From: Morinoia aosen
Lineage: Eukaryota; Arthropoda; Malacostraca; Amphipoda; Talitridae
DNA: 64,000 nucleotides
Assembly (NCBI GenBank): GCA_030386875.1
Contig: CM059578.1
Span: forward strand, 24,909,009-24,973,008
Direction of reading: 5' to 3'
Shown piece by piece: positions 1 to 64,000 of this stretch (the first letter of the stretch is position 1; every line of letters starts with the position of its first letter). The translations under genes were made by a program, and so were the position numbers. The notes below the pieces were generated by a model. It did no database searches and was not told where the DNA came from. It saw only the letters and a program-made list of their open reading frames with translations.

Positions 1-1205
1 TCAAGCAGACCCTATTCCATATAATTGAACGAGAAAATATATATGGCAGCCAGAATGTCTCTGCTGGAGAAATTGTAATGGAACGCATTTTCGTTATTTG
101 ACCATTAGCATTTTAAGTGGTTATTATTTAGAATTTGATGGAAGGATGTTAGCGTACAGAAAGATTTTGAATTCTTGAGGAATAAGGGCAAAGACATAAG
201 AATTAAATAAGGTAAAATACGTGTGGGACCGAAATTTGAACTATAGAACAGGACAGGGCACCCTGAATGAGTAAAGTTTAGTTGTATGTAGGTGAGTTGG
301 AAGGGTGTCGAGTAAGTTAATTAAAGTCATACTTAGTGCAAGATAGGTTAATTTCAGTTAGGTTGAAGTAGGTTACGTTAAATCAGGTTTGCTTAGGTGA
401 TTTTAGACTATGTTTCGTTAGTTGAGGTTAGGTGACTTTGCCTTGAGTTAGGTTGGCTTAGAGTACGTTATATTACTTTAGATAGAGTGTGACACGCAAA
501 CAGATTTAAAGATTTGATGAGCTGTAACACAACCGTATAGTCAGTGTAATACTACGAATGAGGGTGCCATCGTTTTGGTTAGGCTGTTATGAGCATGGGA
601 ATGGTTTGGTGAATTGATTTTTCACCAGTTTTTTGGTTGTAAGACATACGTTTAGTCAGTGTAATACTATGAATGAGGGTATCATATCGTTTTGGATAGG
701 CTGTGTTTTTCATGTGAATGGTTTAGAGAGAACTACTTTCGCACCAGTTTGTTAGTGGCAAGGTTAGGTTGATATTACTGTTAGTATATATGTGAATGAT
801 ATTGCTTTTGCTAAATGAAATTGTTGTGGTGTTTTCAAGTTCGACATAGAGTTTAGAGTGACAGACGTTGTATATTGGTTTGTTTTGTGAGACGATGTTG
901 TCTGTAAGTGGGTGTCTTCTGAATTGTGGTGATTCGTTTCGTCAATTGAGCATTAGTGATTAGAGATAGAGATTAGTGTTGAATAGAGATTAGTGTTGAA
1001 AAATGAAATGGTTGTGGTGTTTGAAAGTTAAACATAGAAATTGAAGTAAATAGCATTGCGTTTTGATACATATATTATTTTGGCATTTGACACGATGGTG
1101 TATCTCATTGCTATGATTTGCATTTTGATACATATATTATTTTGGCATTTGACACGATGGTGTATCTCATTGCTATGATAGTGGTGTACAGAGGAATGTC
1201 TGTGT
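1..1205 (+). repeat. R1 unit 0, 3' end only (alpha-type tail)
   Basis: Last 1.2 kb of an R1 unit cut by the window edge. It contains the GGTTA-rich tract (about 300-480) and, just before the next core, a 62-bp segment repeated in tandem (1,056-1,117 and 1,118-1,179). That doubling marks the alpha subtype. Its best partner is 36,037-37,239. Confidence 0.85.
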
Positions 1206-1250
1206 GTTCGCCCCTTGCGGGCTGTGCCTGGTTACTTGCGGCGGGCGAAC
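1206..1250 (+). other. R1 core inverted repeat, unit 1
   Basis: GTTCGCCC pairs perfectly with GGGCGAAC across a 29-nt spacer. The spacer also holds a competing GCCC/GGGC hairpin. This is the most GC-rich point of the unit, and both arms are intact in all nine cores. Confidence 0.7.
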
Positions 1251-2840
1251 TTTGTAGGTTGCGAGAACACACTAAAAATAGTACCCGTGAAAAAATCATA
1301 CCTGGCTCCAACATCGAAATGCTGGTCGCCGAAAGGTGGAGCCTCGAGTATTATAAAAATTCACCCCCTAATTCGCGCAAAACCACACTTCCCGAGGTCC
1401 TAGCGCTCTCAAACTTGGTGAGCGTGTACAAGGGAAAATTCTAAGATCTACGGACCCCTTTCCAGGCCCCAAGACCCCATAGGAGACCCCCGAGAAGTCG
1501 AAAACCGACCGAAAATAGGGTCATTTCAAACATGAAGAATTTTTTGATTGCGCCGTCGGAGGAGCTGACTTGGTGGGAGCTGATAGAGAAAATGTCGGGC
1601 TTTAAGACGGTGTGATCGTTACTTCGAAAAGTATTAGGGAAAATGTTCAATGAATGAAAAACTTTTGGGTAAAAAAACGGGCGTTTTTCAAGTGTCACTT
1701 TGGCTGCCAGTTGCGGCGTTTTCGATGGGCTTTCGCCTCCCAAAATTTGATAGAATGTAGATTGGAGTTTTTTCTAAAATCTATCAAATTTATGAAGCGA
1801 CAATTGCGATACTTTTCTCAAAATGAGCGATTTAAAAATAGTCCTTTTTGTCTGAAAATTCACTTAAACCAAAGACATTGGAGAACGCTTCGTTTTACAG
1901 GCAAAGTTGTTGAACACTTTTTGCTCGTTTTTTCACGCTACATACAAAATAGTTTTTGTGGAACGATCGCATCAACCGTTCCATATATATATGGAAAAAA
2001 CATGTTTTTCACGTCATTTCGACTTTTATTACCCCTCTCACGCCCCCTGCTTTACCCCTGAGGGCTTTTAAGTACTCTGTAGTGATGCGTCTCGGGGACA
2101 TCTTTCTATAATGATACCTGTCTCAAAGTCCTAGCTTTTCAAGTTTTTGAGAAAAATGGAAAAAACATCGAAATAAATTTCCCCTGGACGCGAAATGTGC
2201 CAGTGAAAAGGTCTTTCAATCTCCGCAGATTTTTTACACGGATTATTCCAATGAAGGCATTGAAGTCTCCGCAATGAAAACCATGGGTGACTGCGTGGAG
2301 GCACCCCAGCTTGCTTGAGTGTTGTGAGGGCTGTATAAGGATCTTGAACATCATGACGGTTATGTTTTATTTTTTGTGGAGTTTGATCCGATATCTTTCG
2401 ATTGTTTGTTAAAGTTCAAAGTTTTACCAAATTTTTTCGAATTGGAGACGCTGTTGATAATTTGTTATAGGTCTACAGTGTTGTTAAAGTTATTATAAAT
2501 TTACTTTGACGTGGCACTCAATACTCGAACTCGGCTCTTTCGCTTATAGATTCGCATAACTTGCAGTCATGACTAGTCAATCATCGTTTTCAAGTGTTGA
2601 AACTGGTTTAACTTGGAACTTTATAGAGAAGAAATGTGTTTAGACTTTGTGATTCAGCTTATGGTAGTATTATTTCAATTCTAACATGTTTGGCAGAAGA
2701 GAAGAAATGATGGTTACGCGTTTTATTTACCCTGCTTGTTGGTCCATGAATGTAAGAGTAATTTGAAGCGGTATGGCCGCTTTTTGAATGGCAATATAGT
2801 AATGAGGTTTAGTATTTGAGACTCAAATTTTCAGCTGCTG

Positions 2841-3069
2841 TTAACCCTTTAACGTCCGAATTTTTGTACTCATATTACCGTTAACACAACCACCGTCAGT
2901 AAACTGGCGCTGGCATCAGGCAGTCACCGATATCAGGATGGGATAGGAACTGCCACCCGGCAGAGAACTTCAAAGAACACATTAGGGATCTAATTGAACA
3001 AGAAATACAATATATTGAGGGTATTTTTGAAAGAGGACACTGGTGTCCTCTGGGGCGTTAAAGGGTTAA
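2841..3069. mobile_element. piggyBac-like MITE in R1 unit 1
   Basis: An insertion of about 221 bp with inverted ends CCCTTTAACGTCC and GGGGCGTTAAAGGG, flanked on each side by TTAA (2,841-2,844 and 3,066-3,069). TTAA target duplication and ends starting CCC are known features of the piggyBac superfamily. No transposase frame is present, so it is non-autonomous. An internal palindrome with 9-bp arms (AGAGGACAC/GTGTCCTCT) lies near the right end. The equivalent place in every other R1 unit reads straight through (near 7,855, 12,660, 38,877, 43,670 and others), so those are empty sites. Closest named alternative: another TTAA-specific family. Confidence 0.85.
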
Positions 3070-4571
3070 TAATTGTATTATAATGATCAAGTTTAAGTTA
3101 TATAAAGCGCCATAAACCGCAAATCAGATGTTGCGTAGAGGCTGAAATATTACACGTGATGCGTTTTTCAGCAAAAACGATGCCCATTCGTTCGTGGTGC
3201 CGGTTTCAGTTCAACTTTATTTATTTTTGATGATTTATTATATGTTGTCCTCACTCTATCACGTTACAAATCAGAAGTTGAACCTAGTGTTTTACCTTAA
3301 AGTGTCAGCATCATCGACCTTACTTCGTAGTATGAGTTCAAATACGCAAAGCGAGTTGTTTTCGACGTCAAAAATCCCGCATGTACTGTGCTGGCGTTCT
3401 TGCGAGGAATTTTAAAGCAAACCTATGATATTTGGAAATCGCAAATTGTGTCATCGGAAAACAAGCCGAATAGGTTAAACTCCGTAACTGAACTATAATT
3501 CACAGGTGATACACTTGAAATTAGTCATCTCTATAGAGATATAGGTTCTAAATATTTTTCGTTCGGCACAGGTCTTTGTGCCTATTTGTGTTGCGTTTGA
3601 AACTTGTTTTTTGACGTTAGAAAATTGAAATTGAAAGAGCTCATAGTCCAAGAATTTGACTTTTCATTTTCTAAATTAATAAAGCTCATTGAGGAACGAA
3701 TCTCTCGATATATTTGTTCAAACAACACGAAAATAGTTCATGTCGACATATGTTTTGATTGAACGAGGCATTTTCTAGGAAGGGTATAGTTTGAGTGAAT
3801 GTTTGTATCATAATTTTTTATGGTTGGGATGTAAAATTGCTGGATCTTCACGACCAAGAACCTGTCAAGTGTTCACGAAAAATTCGATCTCCAATAATAA
3901 TAATTAAAAGTCGTTGTTTGAAGGCCTCAAAATCGCTCACATTGCATGCGTGAGTTTCAGGAAGTCATCATTTGAGTGAGTATAGACAAGATTACGAGGT
4001 TGTAACTGATGATTAATATTTGGTGAATATGTGTCCCCGAAGACAACGAAATCGTGTGCAGGTTTTGTATGTTTGAATGTTGTTATTTATTGAATTTGAA
4101 ATGGTATAACTAATGTATTTGCAATAATAATTTATAAATTCCACTCAGCCTAATTGAAGGTTTCTGTATCGATCCACAATAGAAATATATGATTAGAAAG
4201 AGGTTGAAATTGTTCACATTCGTGAACTAATAATTGTTGTGGCGAAAATGATGTCTATTAGGAAACACATCAGTGATTCTAAGCTATAGCCGCAGGTGTT
4301 CACAGATAAATTTGTTTGAGAAATGTCAGAAATATGTTCGGATATGATGTTGTCGTAATGAATGGGGAATTCCTAAGTTTGATTTCTGATATGAAGAGAT
4401 TGATTTGGTGTCAATGATGCTTTTAGAAAGTTCGTAGTTGTATGTAAGTTGTAAGTGCACTCAAAATTATAGATGAGTGCCAAATGCTCAAATAGTGTTG
4501 AAAGTTTCCATGAGATTTGCTGCGAATGCGTTCTTTCTTTGTATTAAGTGACTTCAACACAAAAACGCTTT

Positions 4572-4603
4572 CGCTTGGCGAGAGCTTGAGATCTCGCCAA
4601 GCG
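4572..4603 (+). other. R1 hairpin 1, unit 1
   Basis: Perfect 12-bp stem CGCTTGGCGAGA / TCTCGCCAAGCG with loop GCTTGAGA. The small GATA-loop hairpin 2 follows at 4,645-4,658. Confidence 0.75.
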
Positions 4604-6221
4604 TTCCCAAAATGGAGAGTTTATTTCTTCGGCGTTCAAGTTAGCGCGCGATAGCGCGTTGTATATATTCGTTGAACGAGTTGTGATGCACAGTTATAAG
4701 AGACTTTGATTATTAGACCTAGAATTAATTGTGAATTATAACTGTTTTATTGCGGTGTTTCGAACGTAAACATTTATGCTTGAATTTTCAAAAGTAGCTT
4801 ACCGCAAAATAAAGATTTTGTCTATTATTTCGAAATATGCATCGTTGTGACGTCATTTCTTCGTGACATCGAATTTCTGTTGAGTATGTAGGTTGGATAT
4901 TTGATGAATTGTCGATTAGAACGAATTAAACTAGTCAACTTCGAAACAAAGGAAAAGGTTAGTGATGCGCACCCATTAATAAACCGAAATGTAATAAATG
5001 TTTCGTCACAATATTTAGTGAGGTAAAATTTGGAACAAATTTTCAATGAAACCCTAATCCCTATAATTTACCGAGAAAATATAGCAGGCAGAATGTCTCT
5101 GCCGGTGAAATAGTTATGGAACGCATTTTCATTTTGTGACCAATAGAATATCAATTGGTTATAAGTTACAGTTTGATGGAAGGATATTTTAGCGCACATA
5201 GAGGTTAGGAATTCGTGAGGAATATAAGGGCAAAGGCGTAAGCAATAAATCAGATAAAATAGGTGCTACCGAAATTGTAAGTATATAGGACAGGGAACCC
5301 TGAATTAGTAAAGTGTAGTTGTATGTACGTGAGTTGGAAATGTGTCAAGTAAGTTAATTCACGTCATATTTAGAGCAAGATAGATTAAATTGAGTTAGGT
5401 TAGAGTAGGTTACGATAAATTAGATTTTTTTAGGTGAGTTTAGACCATGTTTCGTTAGTTGAGGTTAGGTGACTTTGCCTTGAGTTAGGTTGGGTTAGAG
5501 AACATTATATTTCTTTAGATAGGGTGTGACAGTGTGACACGAAAGCTGATTTAAAGATTTGATGAGTTGTAACTTATACGTATGGTCTGTGTTATACTAT
5601 GAATGAGGGTGCCATCGTTTTGGTTAAGCTTTGTTATTCATGTGAATGGTTTGGAGAAATTATTTCGCATCAGTTTGTTATAGTGACAAGGTTAGGTTGA
5701 TATTACTGTTAGTATATATGCGAATGATATTGCTTTTGGTAAATTAAATTCTTTAGGTGTTTGTAAGTTCGATGTAGAGTTTAGGTTGAAAGACGTGTAT
5801 ATATATTGGTTTGTCTTTTGAGACGATGGTGTGTGAAAGTGGGTTGCTTCTTAATTGTGGTGATTTGTTAAGTTTCGTTAATTGAATTACGTTTCACCTC
5901 AATTGAATGAAAGTGAATTAAGTTTCTTCATCAATGGTGTTTGAGTTGGTGAAGCATTGAATATCAATATATATTATTTTGCCATTTGAGACGATGGTGT
6001 ATATCATTGCGTTGCTTCTGATTTGGGGTGCTTTGAAAACTGTGCACGACATATGCATGTGCGAGAATACTGTTTGCGTTTGTGTTTGTGTAAATGTGTG
6101 AATGTCTCTCCGTGAGTGTGTGTGTGTGTGTGTGTGTTTGTGTGTGTTGTGATTATTATGATAGTGGTGCAGAGGAATGTCTGTTTGTGTTGTGCTTAGT
6201 GGTATACAGAGGAATGTCTGT

Positions 6222-6266
6222 GTTCGCCCCTAGCGGGCTGTGCCTGGTTACTTGCGGCGGGCGAAC
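6222..6266 (+). other. R1 core inverted repeat, unit 2
   Basis: Both 8-nt arms intact. Inner spacer begins CTAGC rather than the CTTGC of unit 1. Confidence 0.7.
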
Positions 6267-9200
6267 TTTGTAGGTTGCGAGAACACACTAAAAATAGTAC
6301 CCGTGAAAAAATCATACCTGGCACCAACATCGAAATGCTTGTCGCCGAAAGGTGGAGCCTCGAGTATTAGAAAAATACACCCCCTAATTCGCGCAAAACC
6401 ACACTTCCCGAGGTCCCAGCGCTTTCAAACTTGGTGAGCGTGTACAAGGGAAAATTCTAAGACATACGGACCCCTTTCCAGGCCCCAAGACCCCATAGGA
6501 GACCCCCGAGAAGTCGAAAACCGACCGAAAATAGGGTCATTTCAAACATGAAGAATTTTTTGATTGCGCCGTCGGAGGAGCTGACTTGGTGGGAGCTGAT
6601 AGAGAAAATGTCGGGCTTTAAGACGGTGTGATCGTTACTTCGAAAAGTATTAGGGAAAATGTTCAATGAATGAAAAACTTTTGGTTAAAAAATCGGCCGT
6701 TTTTCAAGTGTCACTTTGGCTGCCAGTTGCGGCGTTTTCGATGGGCTTTCGCCTCCCAAAATTTGCTAGAATGTAGATTGGAGTTTTTTCTAAAATCTAT
6801 CAAATTTATGAAGCGACAATTGCGATACTTTTCTCAAAATGAGCGATTTAAAAATAGTCCTTTTTGTCTGAAAATTCACTTAAACCAAAAAAATTGGAGA
6901 ACGCTTCGTTTTACAGGCAAAGTTGTTGAACACTTTTTGCTCGTTTTTTCACGCTACATACAAAATAACTTTTGTGGAACGATCGCATCAACCGTTCCAT
7001 ATGTATATGAAAAAAACATGTTTTTCACGTCATTTCGACTTTTATTACCCCTCTCACGCCTCCTCCTTTACCCTTGAGGTCTTTTAAATACTCTGTACTG
7101 ATGCGTCCCGAGGACATCTTTCTATAATGATACCTGTCTCAAAGTCGTAGCTTCTCAAGTTTTTGAGAAAAATGGAAAAAACTTCGAAATAAAATTCCCC
7201 TGGACGCGAAATGTGCCAGTGAAAAGGTCTTTCAATCTCCGCAGATTTTTGACATGGATTATTCCAATGAAGGCATTGAAGTCTCCGCAATGAAAACCAT
7301 GGGTGACTGCGTTGAGGCACCCCAGCTTGCTTGAGTTGTGAGAGCTGTATAAGGATCTTGAACATCATGACGCTTATGTTTTCACGTTTGTCGAATTTGA
7401 TCCCATATATTTCGAGTGATTGGTAAAGTTCAAAGTTTCAACCAATTTTTGACCGTTTGAGGCTGTGTTGCAAATTTTTCATAGGTCTACAGTGTTGTTA
7501 AAGTTATTACAAATTTATTTTGACGTGGAACTCAATACTCGAACTCGGTTCTTTCGCTTTTAGATTCGCATAACTTGCAGTCATGACTAGTAAATAATCC
7601 TTTTCAAGTGTTTAAACTGGTTTTACATGGAAATTAATGGAGAACAAATGTGTTTAAAATATTTCATTCACCTTAAGGTAGTATTATTTTAATTCTAACA
7701 AGTTTTGCAATGGAGAATAAATGATGGTTACGCGTTTTATTTTCGCTGCTTGAAGGTCCATGAATTTCAGACACACATTTTCACAGGTATGGCGACTTTG
7801 AATTGCAATATAGTAATGAGGTTTAGTATTTGAGACTTAAATTTTCAGCTTCTTATAATAATTGTATTATAATTATCCAGTTGAAGTAATACAAAGTGAC
7901 ATAAATCGCAAATCAAACGTTGCGTAAAGGCGTAAATATTGCTCTTGATGCGTTTTTGACCAGAAATGATGCTCATTCGTTCGAGGTGCTCATTTCAGTT
8001 CGACTTTATTTATTTTTTATGACGTATTATATGTTGTCCTCTCTCTCCATCACGTTACAAATCACAAGTTCAATCTAGTGTTTTACCTTAAGGTGTCAGC
8101 ATCATCGACCTTACTTCGTAGTATGAGTTCAAATACGCAAAGCGAGTAGTTTTCGACGCCAAAAATTCCGCAACTACTTTGCTAGCGTTCTTGAGAACAA
8201 TTTTATAGCAATCCTATAATATTTCGACATCGCAAATTGTGTCATCGCAAAACAAGGCGTATTCGTAAAACTTCGTAAATGAACTATAATTCAAAGGTGA
8301 TACACTTTAAATTAGTCATTTGTATAAAGGTATAGTGGCTAAATATTTTTCGTTCGGCACAGCTATTCGTGTAGTGTTTGAAACTTGTTTTATGACGTTA
8401 GAAAATTGAAATTGAAAGAGCTCATAGTCCAAGAATTTGACTTTTCATTTTCTAAATTAATAAAGCTCATTGAGGAACGAATCTCTCGATATATATTGGT
8501 TCAAACAACACGAAAATGGTTTATGTCGACATATATGCTTTGATTGAACGAGGCATTTTCTAGGAGGGGTATAGTTTGAGTGAATATTTGTATCATAATT
8601 TTTTATTGTTGGGATGTGAAATTGCTGGATCTTCACGACCAAGAACCTGTAAAGTGTTCACGAAAAATTCGATCTCCATTAATAATAATAATTAAAACTC
8701 GTTGTTTGAAGGCCTCAAAATCGCTCACATTGCATATGCGTGAGTTTCAGGAAGTCATCATTTGAGTGAGTATAGACAACATTACGAGGTTCTAACTGAT
8801 GAATAATATTTGGTGAATATTTGTCCCCGAAGACAACCAAATATTTTGCAGGTTTTGTATGTTTGAATGATGTTATTTATGAAATTCGAAATGGTATAAG
8901 TGATATATTTGCAAGAATGTTTTATAAATTCCACTCAGCCTAATTGAAGGTTTCTGTATCGATGAATAATAGAAATAGAAGATTAGAGAGAGGTTCAAAT
9001 TGTTCCCATTCCTGAAAGAATTGATTGTTGTGGTGAAAATAATGTCTATTGGGAAATATAAGTGATTCTAAGCTATAGCCGCAGTTGTTGACAGATTCAT
9101 TTGCTTGAGAAATGTGAGGAATATGTTCGGATATGATGTTGTCGTAATGAATGTGGACTTGCTAAGTTTGATTTCTGATTTGAAGAGATGAATTTCTTGT

Positions 9201-9359
9201 CAATGATGCATTAGAAAGCTTTTAGTGGAATGTAAGTTGTAAGTGCACTCAAAATTGTAGCTGAAGGCCAAATGCGCAAATATTGTTGAAAGTTTCCAAG
9301 AGATTTGCTGTGAATGCGTTCTTTCTTTGTATTTACTGACTTCAACACAAAAACGCTTT

Positions 9360-9391
9360 CGCTTGGCGAGAGCTTCAGGTCTCGCCAAGCG
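9360..9391 (+). other. R1 hairpin 1, unit 2
   Basis: The 12-bp stem is unchanged and the loop is GCTTCAGG. Hairpin 2 is the short form GCGC-GATA-GCGC at 9,432-9,443. Confidence 0.75.
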
Positions 9392-11024
9392 TTCCCAAAA
9401 TGGAGAGTTTATTTCTTGGGCCTTCAACTTAGCGCGATAGCGCGGTGTGTATATATTCGTTTACCGATTTGTGATGCACAGTTAAGAGACTTTGATTGCT
9501 AGCCCTATAATGAATTGTTAATGATAAGTGTTTGATTACGATTTTTGGACCGTAAAGCTTTAGACTTGAATTTTGAAAATTAGCTTATTGGCAAAATAAA
9601 GATTTTATGTAATATTTCCCAATTGGCATCGCTGTGACGTCATCATTTCTTCGTGACATCGAATTTCTTTGGAGTATGTAGGTTGGATATTTGATGAATT
9701 GTCGATTAGAACGAAGTGAACTTGTCAACTTCAAAACAGAGGGAAAGTCTAGTGATGCGAACCGATGAATAAACCAAAATGTAAGAAATGTTTCGTCACA
9801 ATATTTCGTGAGCTAAAATTTTGAACAAATTCAAGCAGACCCTATTCCATATAATTGAAAGAGAAAATATAGCAGCCAGAATGTCTCTGCTGGCGAAATA
9901 GTAATGGAACGCATTTTCGTTATTTGACCATTAGGATTTTAAGTGGTTATTATTTAGAATTTGATGGAAGGATGTTAGCGTACAAAGAGATTATGAATTC
10001 TTGAGGAATAATGGCAAAGACATAAGAATTAAATAAGGTAAAATACGTGGGACCGAAATTTGAACTATATAACAGGACAGGACACCCTGAATTATTTAAG
10101 TTTAGTTGTATGTAGGTGAGTTGGAAGTGTGTGTCGAGTAAGTTAATTCAAGTCATATTTGGAGCAAGATAGGTTAATTTCAGTTAGGTTAAAGTAGGTT
10201 ACGTTAAATCAGGTTTGCTTAGGTGATTTTAGACTATGTTAGTTGAGGTTAGGTGACTTTGCCTTGAGTTAGGTTGGCTTAGAGTACGTTATATTACTTT
10301 AGATAGAGTGAGACACGCAAACAGATTTAAAGATTTGATGAGCTGTAACACATACGTATAGTCAGTGAAATACTACGAATGAGGGTGCCATCGTTTTGGT
10401 TAGGCTGTTATGAGCATGGGAATGGTTTGGTGAATTGATTTTTCACCAGTTTTTTGGTTGTAAGACATACGTTTAGTCAGTGTAATACTATGAATGAGGG
10501 TATCATATCGTTTTGGATAGGCTGTGTTTTTCATGTGAATGGTTTAGAGAGAACTACTTTCGCACCAGTTTGTTAGTGGCAAGGTTAGGTTGATATTACT
10601 GTTAGTATATATGTGAATGATATTGCTTTTGCTAAATGAAATTGTTGTGGTGTTTTCAAGTTCGACATAGAGTTTAGAGTGACAGACGTTGTATATTGGT
10701 TTGTTTTGTGAGACGATGTTGTCTGTAAGTGGGTGTCTTCTGAATTGTGGTGATTCGTTTCGTCAATTGAGCATTAGTGATTAGAGATAGAGATTAGTGT
10801 TGAATAGAGATTAGTGTTGAAAAATGAAATGGTTGTGGTGTTTGAAAGTTAAACATAGAAATTGAAGTAAATAGCATTGCGTTTTGATACATATATTATT
10901 TTGGCATTTGACACGATGGTGTATCTCATTGCTATGATTTGCATTTTGATACATATATTATTTTGGCATTTGACACGATGGTGTATCTCATTGCTATGAT
11001 AGTGTTGTACAGAGGAATGTCTGT

Positions 11025-11070
11025 GTTCGCCCTAGCGGGCTGTGCCTGGTTACTTGCGGCGGGGGCGAAC
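11025..11070 (+). other. R1 core inverted repeat, unit 3
   Basis: Arms intact although one C is lost after the left arm and two G are gained before the right arm. Length changes fall outside the pairing bases. Confidence 0.65.
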
Positions 11071-42031: not shown

Positions 42032-42076
42032 GTTCGCCCCTAGCGGGCTGTGCCTGGTTACTTGCGGCGGGCGAAC
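42032..42076 (+). other. R1 core inverted repeat, unit 7
   Basis: Identical to unit 2. Confidence 0.7.
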
Positions 42077-45170: not shown

Positions 45171-45202
45171 CGCTTGGCGAGAGCTTCAGTTCTCGCCAAG
45201 CG
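45171..45202 (+). other. R1 hairpin 1, unit 7
   Basis: Stem intact, loop GCTTCAGT: one loop change relative to unit 2 in an otherwise near-identical unit. Confidence 0.75.
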
Positions 45203-46835: not shown

Positions 46836-46879
46836 GTTCGCCCTAGCGGGCTGTGCCTGGTTACTTGCGGCGGGCGAAC
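46836..46879 (+). other. R1 core inverted repeat, unit 8
   Basis: Arms intact. One C fewer after the left arm, as in unit 3, its positional partner. Confidence 0.68.
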
Positions 46880-50190: not shown

Positions 50191-50222
50191 CGCTTGGCGA
50201 GAGCTTCAGGTCTCGCCAAGCG
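50191..50222 (+). other. R1 hairpin 1, unit 8
   Basis: Stem intact, loop GCTTCAGG. The last of seven copies; unit 9 lacks it. Confidence 0.75.
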
Positions 50223-51912: not shown

Positions 51913-51957
51913 GTTCGCCCCTAGCGGGCTGTGCCTGGTTACTTGCGGCGGGCGAAC
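51913..51957 (+). other. R1 core inverted repeat, unit 9
   Basis: Identical to unit 4. Confidence 0.7.
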
Positions 51958-54900: not shown

Positions 54901-55608
54901 TATGTATACGATCGTTCTGAATAAGCCTTAGTATTTCGGAAATGTAAATACTCGGCAAATGTTTATATGCGGTTTAATTCATGAAGTTTCAAGATATTGA
55001 GAGACTTAATTTTGTGCTAAAATGAAGTGCCATTGAAGATGTGTTGTTTGGTGTGTGAATGAAATGATCGTTGTGAATACATGTGAAGTATGCTTATTGG
55101 TAACATTTCACGTTTTCTTAGTTTGTCCAACAGAAAACGTTTAGGAAAATTTTTGTAACGAATACTCCTTCATGTGAATGAGTTTGGTAAATATAGACAT
55201 GAGTGGAATATTTGACAACAAACTACTTGGTGTGCACAATGGAAACTGTGAAATTCATGTTTCAATGGTATCCGTATGTAAAGTTAGTGAAATGAGTTGA
55301 AAATATTCTTGCCCCTTCAAAGTTGAGAAATATGAAGGATTTGATGTGAAATGTGTCTTTTCAACTTGAAAAAAGTATGTAATACATTGCCTGTAGTTTG
55401 TGTGCCATTTTTGTGTACGAATGTTGATACTTCATATTGTGAATGGAAAGTAACAGCCATAAGTGTTAAAGAAATAGATTTTCTGAACATACATATGAGG
55501 TTTATCAGTGCACCAAGACAAATCATGTCTGTGCTGTTGAAAGGTAGAAGTGACATTTGAATGGGAAGAAAGGATTGAACATTGGAATTAAATATTTGAA
55601 ATGTTAGT
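51913..55608 (+). repeat. R1 unit 9, chimeric with diverged 3' half
   Basis: Partner of unit 4 at an offset of 36,063 bp and close to it throughout, including the switch to the old lineage after about 54,010 and the internal 0.27-kb duplication (53,806-54,355). The chimera therefore formed before the 36-kb duplication. The 135-codon frame is at 52,361-52,768. The 3' boundary is taken at the start of the 0.33-kb repeats. Confidence 0.82.
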
Positions 55609-56265
55609 GTTGATATTGTAGTAGAAAGGCTAGTATTTGTCACTCATATGAATTTTAGGAAATGAACAATAATTTCGTAGAGGCTATAGAGAAGGGTGAT
55701 GTAAATGTTTTTGGGTAAATGTTTAGGAGAGGGCCATTAAAGATTTCCCTTTTTCGGTGCCTAAACATAGCACATTAGATGCAAATAAGCAATTTTGCAT
55801 CTGTGTACTTTTTGTCAGAAATGAACATTCAAAGAGTTATAGCGGTATGTTCATATTTGCGTTTTAAGACCCCCGCGGAGCCTGAACCAATAGGGAGAAA
55901 TGATTGAACATTGGAATTAAATATTTGAAATGTTAGTGTTGATAATGTAGCAAAAATGAAAGTATTTGTCACTGATATGAATAATATGAAATGAACACTA
56001 ATTGCGTAGAAGCTGTAGAGAAGGGGGATTGAAAAGTTTTTGGGTAAATGTTGAGGAGAGGAGCATTATAGATATCCATTTTTCAGAGCCTAAACATAGC
56101 ACATTAGATGTAAATAAAGAATTTTGCATCTGTGCACTATTTGTCGGAAATGAATATTCAAAGAGTTATAGCGGTATGTTCATATTTTCGTTTTCAGACC
56201 CCTTGGAGCGTGAACCAATAGGGAGAAATGATTGAACATTGGAATTAAATATTTAAAATGTTAGT
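55609..56265 (+). repeat. 0.33-kb tandem repeats ahead of R2 (two extra copies)
   Basis: Units begin at GTTGAT(A/T)(A/T)TGTAG at 55,609, 55,938 and 56,266 (periods 329 and 328 bp). Each holds only the left arm of foldback F1, ends at GAGC(C/G)TGAACCAATAGGGAG, and leads into ATTGAACATTGGAATTAAAT again. The third copy is the start of the complete R2 unit. The 36-kb partner region (near 19,553) has one copy. Confidence 0.88.
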
Positions 56266-56399
56266 GTTGATAATGTAGTAAAAATGATAGTATTTGTGAC
56301 TCATATGAATATTATGAAATGAACAATAATTGCGTAGAAGCTGTAGAGAAGGGGGATTGAAATGTTTTTGGGTAAATGTTTAGGAGAAGGCCATTAAAG

Positions 56400-56868
56400 A
56401 TTTCCCTTTTGGGTGCCTAAACATAGCACATTAGATGTAAATAAAGAATTTTGCATCTGTGCACTTTTTGTCGTAAATGAATATTCAAGGAGTTATAGCG
56501 GTATGTTCATATTTGTGTTTTTGGACCCCGCGCAGCCTCAACCCGCATTGAGGATCCATGAGTGAATAACACAATGATGGTTATCATCCAAATGTATTAG
56601 GTAAAAAATTCTTGATGTGGGTTTAGCCCTTGCAGGGTTGGCACATGCACCGACTCGATCATTCGAGCTCATCGAAAGGGAGAGTTCATTGTATTGTTAT
56701 GCCATCCAACGCGCTCGATGAGTTACTTCCTGCTTCAAACTCTAGAGTTGCGGGAACTGATTTACCGCTAGAACTCGTGAAATATTCATTTCCGGCGGAA
56801 AGTGCGTAGACAAAAAATGTTCATTTATATGTAATTATCTACGTTTATGCTAAAAAAATAGGCAAATC
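56400..56868. mobile_element. F1 foldback element, R2 unit 1
   Basis: Left arm GGTGCCTAAACATAGCACAT; right arm end CGTTTATGCTAAAAAAATAG. Inner motifs AGTTATAGCGGTA and TTACCGCTAGAACTC face each other. Confidence 0.62.
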
Positions 56869-56964
56869 GATGATGTTCTTCTAGTCAACATTAACCATGT
56901 TTTTGTGGAGATAGTGAAATTATAGATTTGGTATTTGTAAAGAAGAGGAAAATAGTTGATTTTT

Positions 56965-57475
56965 TGATTTTTGCTGCCTAAACATAGGTAATTAGATCAA
57001 GATGAACAATTGTTTTCAATGTACTTTCCATCGCAAGTGAGTATTTAATGAGTTATAGCGGTATGTTGATTTTCGTCGTGTATGATTAGGCGACCCTGCG
57101 GAGCGTGAACCCACTTCCAGGATGTTTGAGTGAATAACACTCCAAAGATATTTGCGCAAGAGAGGTAGTGTATACCTAAATCAGGGGGAACATTGATTTT
57201 TTGGGTGCCTGAGTATTTAGCGAGCTATATCGGTTGACGGCATTATCGATGGGTCGACCAACTATTACTTGACTGTTGGGAGGGAGAGTCCATCAGTGGT
57301 CCCCATGTTGCAGTGTCAATTTAGGATCTTACCTATTTTTTCCCAAGCTTGCATCAATAGAATTGCTATGAGTTACCGCTATAACTTGTGAAATATTCAT
57401 TTGCCCCGGAAAGTGCATGGAAGAAAAATGGTTTCTTTACTTCTACTGAACTATGTTAAGGCAGCAAAAAATGGA
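56965..57475. mobile_element. F2 foldback element, R2 unit 1
   Basis: Ends TTGCTGCCTAAACATAGG and CTATGTTAAGGCAGCAAAA are near-perfect inverted repeats. Inner motifs AGTTATAGCGGTA and TTACCGCTATAACT. Confidence 0.65.
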
Positions 57476-57873
57476 AAAATTTTTTTTTTCTCTTCTTGAC
57501 ATTGACCAAAAATGAAGATTGTTTCTCTTTAGAAATAGCTTCAATGATAGGTATGTAATTTTTTCAGTGAATGTGTGTAAGTTTTATTCTATTGAGATAG
57601 AATATTAAATTATGAATCCTTTTCATTAAACTCAGTAGTGAAATGGATTCATTAAGAAAGCATTTTGAAGTGTTTAAATGTAGTGAAGTGTTGAAACAAA
57701 TGTGTAAATGAATAGTCTTACATAGTTGGAATAGTTTGGGTCTTCAGTTTGACATTAGGTAGACTTGATTGATGTTGAATGAGTATATGTAGGCAATGTT
57801 TTGTTAGTGACTTGATATACTTTCATGTTGTGTTTTTCTCTTGGATGTAGAAATGTCAGATTTTTCTCATTAT

Positions 57874-58422
57874 TTTCGGTCAATGTTGAATATAATGTTG
57901 TCAACGAATTTCATAATTTCGTAGGTATAGAAAGGTAATATAGTCAATTTTAAGACGTTTTACATGAATGGCAATATGCCCGCAAATGCTTAGTTTAGGA
58001 GATATAGGATAAATAATGCCAGGAAAGAATAGCATTAACGGCAGTTTCGAAATGGCTGTTCCGGCGTTTTGCGGACGCGGACCACGCCAATTTTTTTTGG
58101 CGGGAGTCATCGGCCTTGGTATGGTTGAGTTAAATTAAGATATATTAGGCTTACTTAGGTTAGGATCCTTAACTAAATGAACTTTACCAAACCTAACCTT
58201 ACCTATCGTTACGTCAGAACCGGATTTCTGCTTATTTACCTCTCCGTTTGTTCAATTTTATAAACGACGTTCCTATAACTTCAAAGTTAAATATCTCCAA
58301 AAATAAGCATTTGCGGGCACATTGTCATTCGTGTAAAACGTCTTAAAATCGACTATATTACCTATCTATACCTACGAAATTATGAAATTTGTTGACAACA
58401 TTATATTCAATATTGACCGAAA
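57874..58422. mobile_element. Long-TIR MITE at R2 junction, copy 1 (549 bp)
   Basis: Terminal inverted repeats of about 133 bp, roughly 90% identical by eye: TTTCGGTCAATGTTGAATAT at the left and the reverse complement of TTTCGGTCAATATTGAATAT at the right. The centre has GGCGTTTTGCGGACGCGGAC and a GGTTAGG/CCTAACC pair. There is no transposase, and no clear target duplication (CATTATT/CTTTATT is the nearest candidate and fails at copy 2). Superfamily not assigned. Confidence 0.85.
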
Positions 58423-58567
58423 CTTTATTGATGTTGATAATGTAGTAGAAATAAAGTTATTTGTTACTTACATGAACAAATGGAAATGAACAATAATTGT
58501 GTACTAGGCAATACAGAATTGTGATTAAAATGTTTTTGGGTCAAGGTTTAGGAGAGGACCATTACAG

Positions 58568-59036
58568 ATTTCCCCCTTTCGGTGCCTAAACATAGCTCAT
58601 TATATGTAAATAAACAAATTTGCACCTGTGGACTTTTTGTCGGAAATGAATATTCAAGGAGTTATAGCGGTATGTTCATATTTGTGTTTACGGACCCCGC
58701 GCAGCCTTAACCCGCATTGAGGATCCATGATTGAATAACACAATGATGGTTATCATCCAAATTTATTAGGTAAAAGATTCTTGATGTGGGTTTAGCCCTT
58801 GCAGGGTTGGCACATGCACCGACTCGATCATTCGAGCTCATCGAAAGGGAGAGTTCATTGTTGTGTTATGCCATCCGACGCGCTCGATGAGTTACTTCCT
58901 GCTTGAAAGTCTTTAGTTGCGGGAACTGATTTACCGCTAGAACTCGTGCAATATTCATTTCCGGCGGAACGTGCGTAGACAAAAAATGTTCATTTATATG
59001 TAATTATCTATGTTTATGCTAAAAAATAGGGAAATC
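58568..59036. mobile_element. F1 foldback element, R2 unit 2
   Basis: Same structure as the copy in R2 unit 1, with scattered single-base differences (for example CGTGCAATATTCAT in the right arm). Confidence 0.6.
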
Positions 59037-59133
59037 GATGATGTTCTTCGAGTCAACATGAACCATGTTTTTGTAGAGATAGTGAAATTATAGATTTTGT
59101 ATTTGTAGAGAAGAGGAAAATAGTTGATTTTTT

Positions 59134-59643
59134 GATTTTTGCTGCCTAAACATAGGTAATTAGATCAAGATGAGCAATTGTTTTCAATGTACTTTCCATC
59201 GCAAATGAGTATTTAATGAGTTATAGCGGTATGTTGATTTTGGTCGTGTATGATTAGGCGACCCTGCGGAGCGTGAATCCACTTCCAGGATGTTTGAGTG
59301 AATAACACTCCAAAGATATTTGCGCAAGAGAGGTAGTGTATACCTAAATCAGGGGGAACATTGATTTTTTGGGTGCCTGAGTATTTAGCGAGGTATATCG
59401 GTTGACGCCATTATCGATGGGTCGACCAACTATTACTTGACTGTTGGGAGGGAGAGTCCATCAGTGTTCCCTCATGTTGCAGTGTCAATTTAGGATCTTA
59501 CCTATTTTTTCCCAAGCTTGCATCAATAGAATTGCTGTGAGTTACCGCTATACCTCGTGAAATATTCATTTGCCCCGGAAAGTGCATGGAAGAAAAATGG
59601 TTTCTTTACTTCTAATGAACTATGTTAAGGCAGCAAAAAAATG
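59134..59643. mobile_element. F2 foldback element, R2 unit 2
   Basis: Ends at GCTGCCTAAACATAGG and CTATGTTAAGGCAGC. The two inner motifs facing each other are retained. Confidence 0.62.
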
Positions 59644-60042
59644 AAAATGTATTTGGTTCACTTCTTGACATTGACCAAAAATGAAGATTGTTTCTCTTTA
59701 GAAATAGCTTCGATGATAGGTATGTAATATTTTCAGTGAATGTGTGTAAGTTTTATTCTATTGAGATAGAATATTAAATTATGAATCCTTTTCATTAAAC
59801 TTAGTAGTGAAATGGATTCAGTAAGAAAGCATTTTGAAGTATTTAAATGTATTGAAGTGTTGAAAGAAATGTGTAAATGAATAGTCCTACATAGTTGGAA
59901 TAGTTGGGGTGTTCAGTTTGACATTAGGTAGACTTGATTGATGTTGAATGAGTATATGTAGGAAATGTTTTGTTAGTGACTTGATTTACTTTCATGTTGT
60001 GTTTTTCTCTTGGATGTAGAAATGTCAGATTTTTCTCATTAT

Positions 60043-60590
60043 TTTCGGTCAATATTGAATATAATGTTGTCAACGAATTTCATAATTTCGTAGGTATAGA
60101 TAGGTAATATAGTAAATTTTAAGACGTTTTACATGAATGACAATATGCCCGGAAATGCTTAGTTTACGAGATATAGGATAAATAACGCCAGGAAAGAATA
60201 GCATTAACGGCAGTTTCGATATGGCTCTTCCGGCGTTTTGCGGACGCGGACCACGCCAAGTTTTTTTGCGGGAGTCATCGGCCTCGGTATGGTTGAGTTA
60301 AATTAAGATATATTAGGCTTACTTAGGGTAGGATCCTTAACTACATTAACTTGACCAAACCTAACCTTACCTATCGTTACGTCAGAACCGGATTTCTGCT
60401 TATTTACCTCTCCGTTTGTTCAATTTTATAAACGACGTTCCTATAACTTCAAAGTTAAATATCTCCAAAAATAGGCATTTGCGGGCACATTGTCATTCGT
60501 GTAAAACGTCTTAAAATCGACTATATTACCTATCTATACCTCCGAAATTATGAAATTTGTTGACAACATTATATTCAATATTGACCGAAA
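60043..60590. mobile_element. Long-TIR MITE at R2 junction, copy 2 (548 bp)
   Basis: Differs from copy 1 by a small number of substitutions and one or two short length changes, and has the same flanks (TTCTCATTA on the left, GATGTTGATAATG on the right). It was therefore copied as part of the R2 unit rather than inserted independently. Confidence 0.85.
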
Positions 60591-60733
60591 CTTCAGTGAT
60601 GTTGATAATGTAGTAGAAATGAAGTGATTTGTTACTTACATGAACAAATGGAAATGAACAATAATTGTGTACTAGGCAATACAGAATTGTGATTAAAATG
60701 TTTTTGGGTAGAGATTTAGGAGAGGACCATTAC

Positions 60734-61204
60734 AGATTTCCCCCTTTCGGTGCGTAAACATAGCTCATTATATGTAAATAAAGAAATTTGCATCTGTGGA
60801 CTTTTTGTCGGAAATGAATATTCAAGGAGTTATAGCGGTATGTTCATATTTGTGTTTTCGACCCCGCGCAGCCTCAACCCGCATTGAGGATCCATGAGTG
60901 AATAACACAATGATGGTTATCATCCAAATTTATTAGGTAAAAGATTCTTGATGTGGGTTTAGCCCTTGCAGGGTTGGCACATGCACCGACTCGATCATTC
61001 GAGCTCATCGAAAGGGAGAGTTCATTGTAGTGTTATGCCATCCGACGCGCTCGATGAGTTACTTCCTGCTTGAAACTCTAGAGTTGCGGGAACTGATTTA
61101 CCGCTAGAACTCGTGAAATATTCATTTCCGGTGAAACGTGCGTAGACAAAAAATGTTCATTTATATGTAATTATCTATGTTTATGCTAAAAAAGTAGGCA
61201 AATG
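60734..61204. mobile_element. F1 foldback element, R2 unit 3
   Basis: As in R2 unit 1, with GGTGCGTAAACATAG at the left end. Confidence 0.6.
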
Positions 61205-61301
61205 GATGATGTTCTTCTAGTCAACATGAACCATGTTTTTGTAGAGATAGTGAAATTATAGATTTGGTATTTGTAAAGAAAAGGAAAATAGTTGATTTTT
61301 T

Positions 61302-61810
61302 GATTTTCGCTGCCTAAACATAGGTAATTAGATCAAGATGAACAATTGTTTTCAATGTACTTTCCATCGCAAATGAGTATGTAATGAGTTATAGCGGTAT
61401 ATTGATTTTCGTCGTGTATGATTAGGCGACCCTGCGGAGCGTGAACCCACTTCCAGGATGTTTGAGTGAATAACACTCCAAAGATATTTGCGCAAGAGAG
61501 GTAGTGTATACCTAAATCAGGGGGAACATTGATTTTTTGGGTGCCTGAGTATTTAGCGAGGTATATCGGTTGACGCCATTATCGATGGGTCGACCAACTA
61601 TTACTTGACTGTTGGGAGGGAGAGTCCATCAGTGGTCCCTCATGTTGCAGTGTCAATTTAGGATCTTACCTATTTTTTCCCAAGCTTGCATCAATAGAAT
61701 TGCTGTGAGTTACCGCTATAACTCGTGAAATATTCATTTGCCCCGGAAAGTGCATGGAAGAAGAATGGTTTCTTTACTTCTAATGAACTATGTTAAGGCA
61801 GCAAAAAAAT
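61302..61810. mobile_element. F2 foldback element, R2 unit 3
   Basis: As in R2 unit 1; ends CGCTGCCTAAACATAGG and TATGTTAAGGCAGC. Confidence 0.62.
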
Positions 61811-64000
61811 GAAAATCTATTTTGTTCTCTTCTTGACATTGACCAAAAATGAAGATTGTTTCTCTTCAGAAATAGCTTTGATGATAGGTATGTAATTTTG
61901 TCAGTGAATGTGTGTAAGTTTTATTCTATTAAGATAGAATATTATATTATGAATCATTTTCATTGAACTTAGTAGTGGAATTGATTCAGTAAAAAACCAT
62001 TTTGAAGTATTTAAATGTAGTGAAGTGTTGAAACAAATGTGTAAATGAATAGTCTTACATAGTTGGAATAGTTGTGGTTTTCATTTAGACATTAGGTAGA
62101 CTTGATTGATGTTGAATGAGCATATGTAGGATATGTTTTGCTAGTGACTTGATTTAATTTCATGTTGTCTTTTTCTCTTGGATGTAGAAATGTAAGATTT
62201 TTCTCATTATTTTCTAGAAGTTTTGATGAAGTTCTACTAAGCAGACAATTTTGTTAATAAAGCGTTAGAGTATACGTTGTTGATTGAATCCTTCAGCATA
62301 AGTATTATCCTTTTTTGTTGTGAATATAGTTTTGGAAAGTTGGATGTGGTTGGGAAATGTTTAATGAGCTCACATCTTGATTCAATAAGTATTGTTCTGT
62401 GGAAGATTTATGACTCAAAGGAAATGGAAATGTTGTTGAAGTGTGGTTGAACTTGAGTATTTGGGTAGCATTTCTTTTAGAGAAATGTGCCCGAGCTAAA
62501 GGTTAGGTAGGGTTTATTTTTTTGTTGAAACAGAGTATGTTTTTGTTTTGTTACGGACCATATTTTTTCGGTTCACTGCTGTCCTGTTTTTTGTCAGCAC
62601 CTACTACTTTCTTCTTCAACTTTGATTTTGATTCATGAAATTCTTCCTCATCTTACTGTTTCTATGGCGTTTCTGCATAGATTCCCCATTCTCTCATCTG
62701 CATACTAAATGGTCGCTTCCTCCTTCCTCTCTTGGATACGTTTTTTTGTAGTGGTTAGGGAGGGTAACTTATAATCTTTATAATCTGGAATGTTTTAGAT
62801 AAATGTACATGTTGATGGTTGTGTTGTGACTGAACAACTAAACGGCCATATAAATGTAAGTGAATTGATAAAAATTTTTACCTGAAATGGAAAAGATGGT
62901 GTGAAAGTGCAGGTTTTGTATAGTAAATGATGTTTTTTGGAAGCTCACGTGTGAGCAAAAAGAGATAATAATTTAGAAATGTTGAAAAGAATAATTGAGG
63001 TAGCGCAGGGTTTTGTGTGTACTACATTTTTTGTAAAATCCCTCTGTGAGACATTGTATTGAAAGAGATTCATGTAGCCAATGCACTTAATTAGCCAGAC
63101 GAGTTGATAATGGAAATTATAAATGATGTTGTATGTATTTACAATGTGTTGGTAATAAAATACACATGTGTAAAGGTGTTGGCATAATTCACTATTCTTT
63201 CAAAACATGAGGGGCTAGAACTTGATGACAAGTAATATCACCTGGTTCTCTTGAAAGATATTTTTTTTGGAGAAAGAAGACTGTGAACAAACATGAATTG
63301 TTTGTGAATAATGTGAAAATATGAATGTATTTGAACCCTGTATTGTATACCCATTTCATTGTTAAATATTGTAAATAAAGGGACTTCTGAAAAGGAAAAT
63401 CGTTTTGTAAAAATGACTGATAGGAATAGGAGATACATTGAGAACAATATTGGGTGTAGGTTGCTGAATCCCAAATGTTCATATGCATGTAAGACTCTGA
63501 ATTGATGGATTCAATATTTTATTTAATGAGAAATAGGTGAAGAAGGATGTCTTGTGTTGAAGACAAATTTAATATGAAGCACGTATGGATGAAAATATTT
63601 GTATGTATGTTGTGGTGTAGATTTTTTTCTACATGAATAGATGCAAGTATGATTGCATTCACTGTAAGTGGGTGGTAGTGAGACTCAATAAATACTTCTT
63701 AAAAAGCAAGGACTTGAATGGAAATTGTCATGAAAGTAGAAGAATGCTTACTAAAAAGTATTGGTTTGTATATCACATGTAGTTCATGATAGCAGTGAGA
63801 CAATTGCATTTTAATTGTTATACTTTGAATTTGAATGGTGGTAAAATAAGGCTGGAATTGGACAGGTACATGGTAGAAATGGTATATACAAGGTACTTAA
63901 GTCATTCTGTCCTGTATATTCCAGAGGAAGAATTTTCAAAGTAATTTTTGGTACAATGTGGTTTGCTTGAGCATTTGTTATTGGGTAATAGTGCAGAAAT
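61811..64000 (+). repeat. B unit, B1/B2 hybrid (runs off the window)
   Basis: The 5' part follows B unit 1 (TCCTTCAGCATAAGTATTAT, present at about 21,103 and here about 62,289). The 3' part continues as B unit 2 does, past the point where B unit 1 ends (GTATATCACATGTAGTTCAT about 63,769; GCTTGAGCATTTGTTATTGG about 63,965, as at 24,114). It looks like B1 and B2 reduced to one by unequal exchange, or the unduplicated ancestral state. It contains an R3 insertion. No gene is visible. Confidence 0.72.
62475..62806 (+). mobile_element. R3 SINE-like element, copy c, with target-site duplications
   Basis: The body (62,489-62,792, about 304 bp) is flanked by TTTTAGAGAAATGT (62,475-62,488) and TTTTAGATAAATGT (62,793-62,806), 14 bp with one mismatch. 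B unit 1 has the matching empty site near 21,285 (TTATAGAGAAATGT running straight on). Duplications of this length are typical of LINE-mediated insertion. The right end has an ATAATCT repeat rather than poly-A. It could also be a processed copy of a host transcript. Confidence 0.78.

What the first reader, a model, noticed from the sequence alone, without database searches (positions are those of the whole stretch)
1..64000. A ~36-kb higher-order tandem repeat with at least two copies
The order R1 array - chimeric R1 - R2 - B occurs twice in the same orientation, with R1 core offsets of 36,034, 35,810, 35,811 and 36,063 bp. Window start matches 36,037. A tandem unit this large, itself made of tandem units, suggests a longer ampliconic or megasatellite block outside the window.
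Basis: seen in the sequence. Interest (0 to 1): 0.8.

Follow-up and report, generated by a model that had tools for sequence, protein, structure and literature searches.

The report
Self-stacking non-coding transposon arrays
The apparent 36-kb repeat is a chance spacing inside a long head-to-tail stack of separate non-coding mobile elements, of a family that has built such stacks on many chromosomes of this probably arthropod genome and seems to insert mostly next to its own copies.

Summary
The two similar stretches about 36 kb apart are real, but 36 kb is not a repeat unit. The window lies in a single-orientation array that starts at C23:24,783,720; family members are seen to 25.117 Mb. It is built of complete elements of three sizes (4.8-5.1, 16.57 and 25.9 kb), each running TTACTTGCGG...CTGTGCCTGG and joined without spacer.

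The same ends occur genome-wide: 918 exact head-to-tail junctions, 65-71 free 5' ends, up to 70 free 3' ends, ten solo-length insertions and a 250-kb array with both ends. Insertions sit in TTYA|TT targets without a consistent duplication beyond a possible TT. A window element is 100% identical to one on another chromosome and 99.94% identical to a solo copy, while neighbours differ. Adjacent units are no more alike than distant ones.

Best reading: a non-coding, Helentron/HINE-like transposon that accretes mainly element by element onto its own junctions. Arrays of discrete elements are well supported; Helentron affiliation and joining chemistry are inferred, and no autonomous partner was found.

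The parts
1..1231 (+). 3' part of a 5,032-bp element (E14), ending ...CTGTGCCTGG
   Evidence: Ends listed; its start C23:24,905,208 is outside the window
1232..6247 (+). 4.8-kb-class element E15 (5,016 bp), TTACTTGCGG...CCTGG
6248..11049 (+). 4.8-kb-class element E16 (4,802 bp); 100% identical to L002 on C1, 99.94% to solo insertion L004 on C6
11050..15875 (+). 4.8-kb-class element E17 (4,826 bp)
   Evidence: a 2-kb piece is found on 13 contigs among the 40 scored of 330 candidates (recounted)
32443..37265 (+). 4.8-kb-class element E19 (4,823 bp)
37266..42057 (+). 4.8-kb-class element E20 (4,792 bp)
42058..46860 (+). 4.8-kb-class element E21 (4,803 bp); 99.8% identical to E04, which starts 115 kb upstream in the same array (C23:24,835,892)
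46861..51938 (+). 4.8-kb-class element E22 (5,078 bp)
   Evidence: a 501-bp piece is 100% identical to a C1 element
51939..64000 (+). 5' 12.06 kb of a long element (E23) of the 25.9-kb type, cut by the window end
   Evidence: 99.8% and 99.5% identical to E02 and E11 (25,912 and 25,914 bp)
   Evidence: (95% at +2,167)
6222..6266 (+). example of a head-to-tail junction: GTTCGCCC (8-bp subterminal repeat) ... GGGCTGTGCCTGG|TTACTTGCGGC GGGCGAAC (subterminal repeat)
   Evidence: 23 of 23 internal junctions in the C23 stretch have no spacer, one of them starting TTACTTAC
46688..46811 (+). 62-bp x 2 tandem repeat near the 3' end of element E21 (same feature at 1056-1179, 10877-11000, 37090-37213)
41926..41961 (+). 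(GT)n microsatellite near the 3' end of element E20 (another at 6112-6151 in E15)

Best explanation
The window is part of a head-to-tail array of complete, non-coding mobile elements. One family with three main sizes (about 4.8-5.1, 16.6 and 25.9 kb) shares a 5' end (TTACTTGCGGCGGGCGAAC), a 3' end (GTTCGCCC-N4/5-GGGCTGTGCCTGG) and the first ~2.1 kb. Shown: elements with these exact ends occur alone at TTYA|TT sites on several contigs and in arrays, one of 250 kb with both ends found; copies moved as discrete units, because identity runs to the element ends and stops there; array neighbours are mostly unrelated subtypes. Inferred: copies are mobilised in trans by a rolling-circle (HUH) Helitron/Helentron-type transposase, and new copies join mainly at existing element junctions, because the 5' edge of a resident copy (TTYA|TTAC) recreates the preferred TTYA|TT target and carries the binding sites of the enzyme. 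Repeated self-targeted joining then gives spacer-free, single-orientation arrays. The 36-kb period is one 16.6-kb element plus four of the 4.8-kb class.
For: Ends: 71 places with the 5' end preceded by a non-G base (A 54, T 15, C 2, tallied); the 65 with four flank bases shown contain no mutated junction, with T at -3 in 63 of 65. 70 places with the 3' end not followed by NNNC; TT follows in 64 of 70. 17 same-strand nearest 5'/3' pairs: 10 of solo length, 4,737-4,862 bp, and 7 longer (9.75, 13.4, 24.1, 48.3, 106.6, 135.3, 249.8 kb); the 249.8-kb one on C1 holds 39 unit tags and 37 exact junctions. Both flanks read for 14 pairs: no consistent duplication other than a possible TT. 918 exact 29-base junctions and 988 exact unit tags. 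Discrete units: eight extracted copies from six contigs are 99.5-100% identical over the whole element, while the following 1,383 bp match at 0.895-0.967 among the array copies and at 0.45-0.47 to the solo's flank. The two 16,567-bp copies are 99.99% identical with right neighbours at 90.5%. Adjacent versus non-adjacent identity 0.911 (15 pairs) vs 0.917 (156 pairs), P 0.78. Non-coding: longest ORF in the window 152 aa; none of 13 ORFs scanned (10 in the window, 3 from the 25.9-kb element E11) reaches a Pfam cut-off. A Helitron_like_N gene pool exists in the genome: 150 scored hits of 289 candidates. C>T exceeds G>A on the + strand (33/448 vs 26/696, Fisher P 0.009, one of six comparisons), as a plus-strand ssDNA intermediate would give.
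Against: No Rep/helicase gene was found with these ends: none of the 150 scored PF14214 hits lies within 60 kb of the 141 listed ends; 139 candidates were not scored. The 5' end is not the TC of canonical Helitrons. The 3'-terminal hairpin is only 3-4 bp and the end folds little better than shuffles (z -1.58, -1.52, -0.98). The subterminal repeats are 8 bp, shorter than in described HINEs. Three of the 14 two-sided sites have the same four bases on both sides (TTCA, TTAA, TTTA), so a short duplication is not wholly excluded. Some elements recur together in several arrays (4,803+5,078 bp in C1, C4 and C23), and C1 has two adjacent long elements of equal length (16,608 bp), so moves of several elements or local duplication also occur. 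Several 4.8-kb-class copies are mosaics of others, so recombination acts as well. Up to 23 of the 70 listed 3' ends read TTA[AGT] and could be mutated junctions; the six of these read further are true ends. Six of the 71 5' ends have C at -4 and were not resolved. The 177-aa frame in E11 slightly exceeds the longest of 30 shuffles (174). The C>T excess is marginal after correction for six tests and could come from transcription.
Confidence: 0.62

Rival explanations
1. Rolling-circle read-through: one element is copied many times from a circle and the concatemer is inserted in one step, as proposed for plant centromeric Helitron arrays.
For: Precise head-to-tail junctions without spacer and one orientation in the C23 array and in the junctions listed for the C1 and C4 arrays; two adjacent 16,608-bp elements on C1; a pair of elements recurring on three contigs.
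Against: Neighbouring units of the C23 array are not clones (adjacent mean 0.911, maximum 0.968 over 15 pairs, while distant pairs reach 0.998). Sizes are mixed within one array. Every inner unit there keeps its 3' end, unlike many plant arrays as described in the review PMC12628747 (passages read).
Confidence: 0.12
2. Site-specific integration of element circles by a tyrosine- or serine-type recombinase with a TT core, giving cassette arrays as in integrons, ICE tandem arrays or Cryptons.
For: The outer and inner junctions share TT (TTYA-TT-ACTTGC, CTGG-TT-NN, CTGG-TT-ACTTGC). The inner junction has an 8-bp inverted repeat around it. It predicts discrete units and preference for resident junctions.
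Against: No recombinase found with these ends; the Crypton-type DUF3504 domain gives three matches within 3 kb at one locus on C12 only (3 of 9 candidates). No integrase-type family other than PF12012 was searched.
Confidence: 0.15
3. An ordinary long-unit satellite (macrosatellite) with a 36-kb higher-order repeat, spread by unequal crossing-over and conversion.
For: Long tandem arrays; similarity at 36-kb offset; mosaics among units.
Against: Irregular spacing, solo-length copies with clean ends in unrelated DNA, identity bounded by element ends, no adjacency effect.
Confidence: 0.06
4. Assembly artefact (collapsed or duplicated copies).
For: Only a single assembly; reads are not available here.
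Against: Copies at the 36-kb offset differ by about 4-8%. The two near-identical long elements have different neighbours. The same ends recur on 26 of 29 contigs.
Confidence: 0.03

Closest known systems
Helentrons and their non-autonomous HINE/DINE-1 elements (PMC4067079, passages read)
   Same: Non-coding, defined ends, preference for TT, no target modification, subterminal inverted repeats, small 3' palindrome, internal microsatellite or tandem repeats.
   Different: Subterminal repeats 8 bp rather than the 12-15 bp of the mite HINEs; an A usually precedes the 5' end; elements up to 25.9 kb; arrays of hundreds of kb made of full-length copies; no autonomous partner identified here.
Tandem Helitron arrays of plant genomes (Xiong et al. 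2016; not read here, known from passages of PMC12628747 and PMC5148889)
   Same: Head-to-tail arrays of rolling-circle elements, there with several to several hundred repeats.
   Different: There many arrays have multiple 5' but a single 3' end and truncated copies; here the 23 complete units of the C23 stretch keep both ends and neighbours are mostly unrelated subtypes.
TE dimers and short tandems from insertion-site preference (McGurk and Barbash 2018; not held, known from passages of PMC12628747); three tandem Helitrons in Metarhizium acridum (PMC5148889, passages)
   Same: A copy inserts at the edge of a resident copy and so makes a tandem (for Metarhizium one of two explanations its authors give).
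   Different: Dimers, 16 copies of hobo, or three copies there; here 918 exact junctions in one genome and a 250-kb array with both ends found.
Integron cassette arrays (recalled, no call)
   Same: Discrete mobile units of different length added one by one in one orientation at shared junction sites.
   Different: Bacterial, mostly coding cassettes with an integrase encoded beside the array; nothing homologous was shown.

Membership tests
Helentron/HINE | Insertion within or next to TT, no target-site modification | tested here: met
   Element starts TT; TT follows the 3' end in 64 of 70; no consistent duplication beyond TT in 14 two-sided sites, three of which share four bases
Helentron/HINE | Subterminal inverted repeats (12-15 bp in mite HINEs, 13 bp in DINE-1) | tested here: inconclusive
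   8-bp GGGCGAAC starting at base 12 of the 5' end and GTTCGCCC ending 17-18 nt before the 3' end; shorter than described
Helentron/HINE | Palindrome near the 3' end | tested here: inconclusive
   3-4-bp terminal hairpin and a 5-bp one about 25 nt from the 3' end; folds little better than shuffles (z -1.58, -1.52, and -0.98 for the diverged relative's end)
Helentron/HINE | Shares ends with an autonomous Rep/helicase(-endonuclease) Helentron | tested here: inconclusive
   None of 150 scored PF14214 hits (of 289 candidates) lies within 60 kb of the 141 listed exact ends; partners sharing only part of the ends, or unscored, are not excluded. Membership is therefore not claimed as proven
Canonical Helitron | 5' TC | tested here: not met
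   5' end is TTACTTGC
Canonical Helitron | 3' CTRR | tested here: met
   ...GCCTGG
Canonical Helitron | Always inserts between A and T, no duplication | tested here: not met
   A before the 5' end in 54 of 71 and T after the 3' end in 64 of 70: preferred, not invariable
Crypton | Element encodes a tyrosine recombinase (DUF3504 type) | tested here: not met
   No Pfam domain at cut-off in the 13 ORFs scanned; PF12012 at one locus on C12 only
36-kb higher-order megasatellite | Constant long period with copies alike over the whole period | tested here: not met
   Spacings 21.4, 64.6, 55.2, 36.1 kb; interior of E18 absent at +36 kb
Plant-type rolling-circle Helitron array | Many 5' ends, a single 3' end, truncated units | tested here: not met
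   Full 3' ends at 23 of 23 inner junctions of the C23 stretch, non-clonal neighbours

The most novel reading that the evidence does not exclude
A eukaryotic cassette-accretion system: element ends act as joining sites, so that mobile units of 5-26 kb are added, mostly singly and in one orientation, to resident junctions and build cassette-like arrays of hundreds of kilobases, comparable in logic to integron arrays, using either a rolling-circle nuclease or an unidentified recombinase. Long 'satellite' arrays would then be made by targeted transposition and not by unequal crossing-over.
Probability: 0.35. Interest if true: 0.8.

Novelty: new variant of a known kind. Interest (0 to 1): 0.58.

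Why it matters
How long-unit satellite blocks arise and how the same units come to sit on many chromosomes is an old question, and the usual answer is unequal exchange. This genome offers a case in which most steps can be read: solo-length copies, a pair, a 250-kb array with both ends, and near-identical elements set among unrelated neighbours. It points to self-targeted transposition as a builder of satellite-like arrays and can be tested by comparing individuals. It also warns that a 'higher-order repeat' inferred from one window can be an accident of element order.

Tried and rejected
A 36-kb tandem unit: rejected. A coding, ampliconic gene family: one ORF of at least 150 aa in the window (152 aa), no Rfam match at gathering score in the window, no Pfam domain at cut-off in 13 ORFs (two sub-threshold matches, DUF7044 at E 0.02 and NGO1945_C at E 0.085). 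Longest stop-to-stop frames were 135, 151 and 177 aa in E16, E18 and E11, against maxima of 168, 177 and 174 aa in 30 base shuffles each, so only E11 slightly exceeds chance; shorter frames were not scanned. A gene-like conserved 'head': the first kilobase is the best conserved part within the array, but the diverged C16 relative is similar along nearly the whole length (200-bp windows mostly 0.62-0.83), so no privileged coding part shows.

Block-wise duplication between chromosomes: three length-matched runs of elements looked shared between arrays (exact two-element matches 4 vs 0.83 expected, P 0.015; with 1- or 2-base tolerance P 0.11 and 0.09; three-element matches P 0.12 or more). Sequence probes confirmed one pair (E21-type + E22-type in C1, C4, C23). 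In the other two runs two of six probes did not fit and a third fitted several elements but not the predicted one: C4 run 1 held the 25.9-kb type but then E08-like and E09-like pieces instead of E03 and E04 (E08 and E09 are neighbours on C23, so a different shared pair is possible), and run 2 held E16-like and E18-like elements around one unlike E17.

An autonomous partner with the same 5' end: the 8-kb C16 stretch holds another element of 4,818 bp without a long ORF. Species: not identified; invertebrate mitochondrial code and abundant TTAGG repeats (15,492 exact 30-mers) suggest an arthropod.


Full report
1. Where the window lies. It is C23:24,909,009-24,973,008 of an unnamed 1.99-Gb genome in 29 contigs. 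Mitochondrial COX1 reads open with the invertebrate code, and TTAGG telomere-type repeats are abundant, so the host is probably an arthropod. The species was not identified.

2. The observation. Self-comparison confirms like-oriented matches at 36,036, 35,813 and 36,062 bp. Adding 200 kb to the left shows that the array begins abruptly at 24,783,720 with a jump in GC skew. The spacings of the long elements are 21.4, 64.6, 55.2 and 36.1 kb. The 36-kb figure is therefore one value of a variable spacing. Further 16.6-kb-type matches lie at C23:25.059 and 25.085 Mb and a 4.8-kb-type match at 25.114 Mb; continuity between 24.973 and 25.058 Mb was not read.

3. Element ends. All 23 inner junctions of the C23 stretch read CTGTGCCTGG|TTACTT without spacer, one of them TTACTTAC. 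Cutting there gives 24 elements, the last cut by the window: 19 of 4,785-5,078 bp, two of 16,567 bp and three of the 25.9-kb type. The block starts with the same TTACTTGCGG, preceded by TTTA. Genome-wide, a pattern demanding a non-G base before this end finds 71 places. A second pattern that shows four flank bases finds 65, and none of them is a mutated junction; the other six have C at -4 and were not resolved. A pattern for 3' ends not followed by NNNC finds 70. Up to 23 of these read TTA[AGT] and could be mutated junctions; six of the 23 were read further and are true ends. The patterns leave out flanks with G at -1, C at -4 or C at +4, and ends with any mismatch, so free ends may also be under-counted and the logo is biased at those positions.

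4. Solo copies and arrays. Pairing each 5' end with the nearest 3' end on the same strand gives ten of solo length (4,737-4,862 bp, on eight contigs) and seven longer intervals up to 249,801 bp. The C1 interval holds 39 unit tags and 37 exact junctions, the C2 interval two tags and one junction; the interiors of the other five were not read. Two of the ten solos (C13, C20:47.75 Mb) have another copy about 35 bp upstream. Fourteen pairs had both flanks read (and locus L004): the 5' side ends in A in 13 and in T in one, the 3' side starts TT in all 14. Three of the 14 have the same four bases on both sides (TTCA, TTAA, TTTA), the other 11 do not. The target is TTYA|TT: T at -3 in 63 of 65, A at -1 in 48 of 65. 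Exact junctions number 918 and exact unit tags 988, against some 65-71 free 5' ends; by these counts most copies sit next to another copy.

5. Copies move as units. Window element E16 (6,248-11,049) is identical over 4,802 bp to L002 on C1, and 99.94% identical to L004, a solo in unrelated DNA on C6. In the ten compared copies (eight loci, E04, E21) the element is 99.5-100% alike, whereas the following sequence is 0.895-0.967 alike among array copies and 0.45-0.47 to the solo's flank. For the preceding 230 bp three of the array contexts (L001, L008, E21) are 0.987-0.996 alike, so some context is shared. The loci were the eight best hits of a query inside E16, out of 40 scored and 1,984 candidates. 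The two 16.6-kb copies are 99.99% identical and their right neighbours 90.5%. Adjacent 4.8-kb-class elements (15 pairs, mean 0.911) are no closer than the 156 non-adjacent pairs (mean 0.917; P 0.78). The long types are likewise near-identical on many contigs: the 40 scored hits of each were 99-100%, on 13 contigs (of 330 candidates) and 11 contigs (of 6,268 candidates).

6. Limits to the one-by-one picture. Element order by length shows a few shared pairs between the C1, C4 and C23 arrays. Twelve 501-bp probes confirmed the pair 4,803+5,078 bp in all three and did not confirm two longer predicted runs, although one of them showed pieces like E08 and E09, which are neighbours on C23. Some 4.8-kb-class elements are mosaics. 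Moves of more than one element, and recombination, also happen.

7. Relatives and coding. The same 19-base 5' end begins elements that differ soon after it. One on C16 is about 72-77% identical to the 4.8-kb type in BLAST pieces through nearly its full length and ends GGGCTATGCTGG after 4,818 bp. Stop-to-stop frames in E16 and E18 are within 30 base shuffles; the longest in E11 (177 aa) exceeds their maximum (174) slightly. Thirteen ORFs have no Pfam domain at cut-off.

8. Mechanism. A 3' end of the CTRR type, a difference between the two ends, no consistent target duplication, TT targets and 8-bp subterminal repeats resemble Helentron-type elements (PMC4067079, passages). The genome holds many Helitron_like_N genes, but none of the 150 scored lies near the listed ends. 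In Helraiser only the plus strand is transposed and precise head-to-tail circles are used (PMC5876387, passages); the observed excess of C>T over G>A on the plus strand (P 0.009, one of six tests) would fit but is weak. Since the edge of a resident copy reads TTYA|TTAC, it matches the preferred target; a nuclease that cuts its own 5' end there could also use it as a target. That step is inference. Growth only at the outer edge would make the 5' end youngest; the data neither show nor exclude this, because near-identical copies occur throughout the array.

9. Novelty. Tandem rolling-circle elements are known: truncated plant arrays; three copies in Metarhizium; satellite-like repeats inside HINE/DINE elements (PMC5148889, PMC12628747, PMC7492417; passages). 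In the listings of my searches of the held library I noticed no case of arrays of this size from full-length, mixed-size, unrelated neighbours; I read passages of five papers only, and subscription papers are mostly not held there. I rate it a new variant of a known kind.

Noticed in passing
C13:2,062,067-2,062,103; C15:4,303,725-4,303,753; C21:80,000,856-80,000,888; upstream of C20:47,751,485: Four cases of two same-strand elements separated by 36, 28, 32 and 34 bp of unrelated sequence that begins TT and ends TTNA (TTCA, TTTA, TTTA, TTAA), as if new copies land about 30 bp upstream of a resident copy.
   Followed up: partly
65 free 5' ends: Flank positions -4 and -1 vary together (T..A 45, A..T 13, other 7); some of the A..T cases are duplicates of one site (L054/L055, L059/L060).
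   Followed up: partly
C2:64,444,603 and 64,561,613; C12:7,145,222 and 7,935,845: Pairs of element insertions with identical host flanks, indicating segmental duplications about 0.12 and 0.79 Mb apart, inverted in the C2 pair.
   Followed up: no
G000:C27:55-72 Mb: Several open COX1-type genes without TGA codons look bacterial; C27 may hold unplaced or symbiont sequence.
   Followed up: no
G000:C28:2209 and 20565; C29:8500; C26:20.75 and 21.03 Mb; C22:9.486 Mb: Several mitochondrial COX1 copies; two on C28 lie 18,356 bp apart (tandem mitochondrial units or concatenated contigs), and C22 holds a partial copy with a TAA stop.
   Followed up: no
C1:8,974,012-9,007,256: Two adjacent long elements of equal length (16,608 bp), a possible local duplication or concatemer.
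   Followed up: no
C27:73.24-74.64 Mb, C21:79.54-80.26 Mb, C6:45.16-45.82 Mb: Clusters of near-identical long-element matches, all on one strand, hint at arrays of 0.7-1.4 Mb; continuity was not read.
   Followed up: no
window 58,090-58,179 +: ARAGORN calls a tRNA-Thr(ggt) inside the repeat, with no Rfam match at gathering score; probably spurious.
   Followed up: partly
whole array from C23:24,783,720: Strong G>C and T>A strand skew over the array, rising toward element 3' ends, with C lost faster than G.
   Followed up: partly
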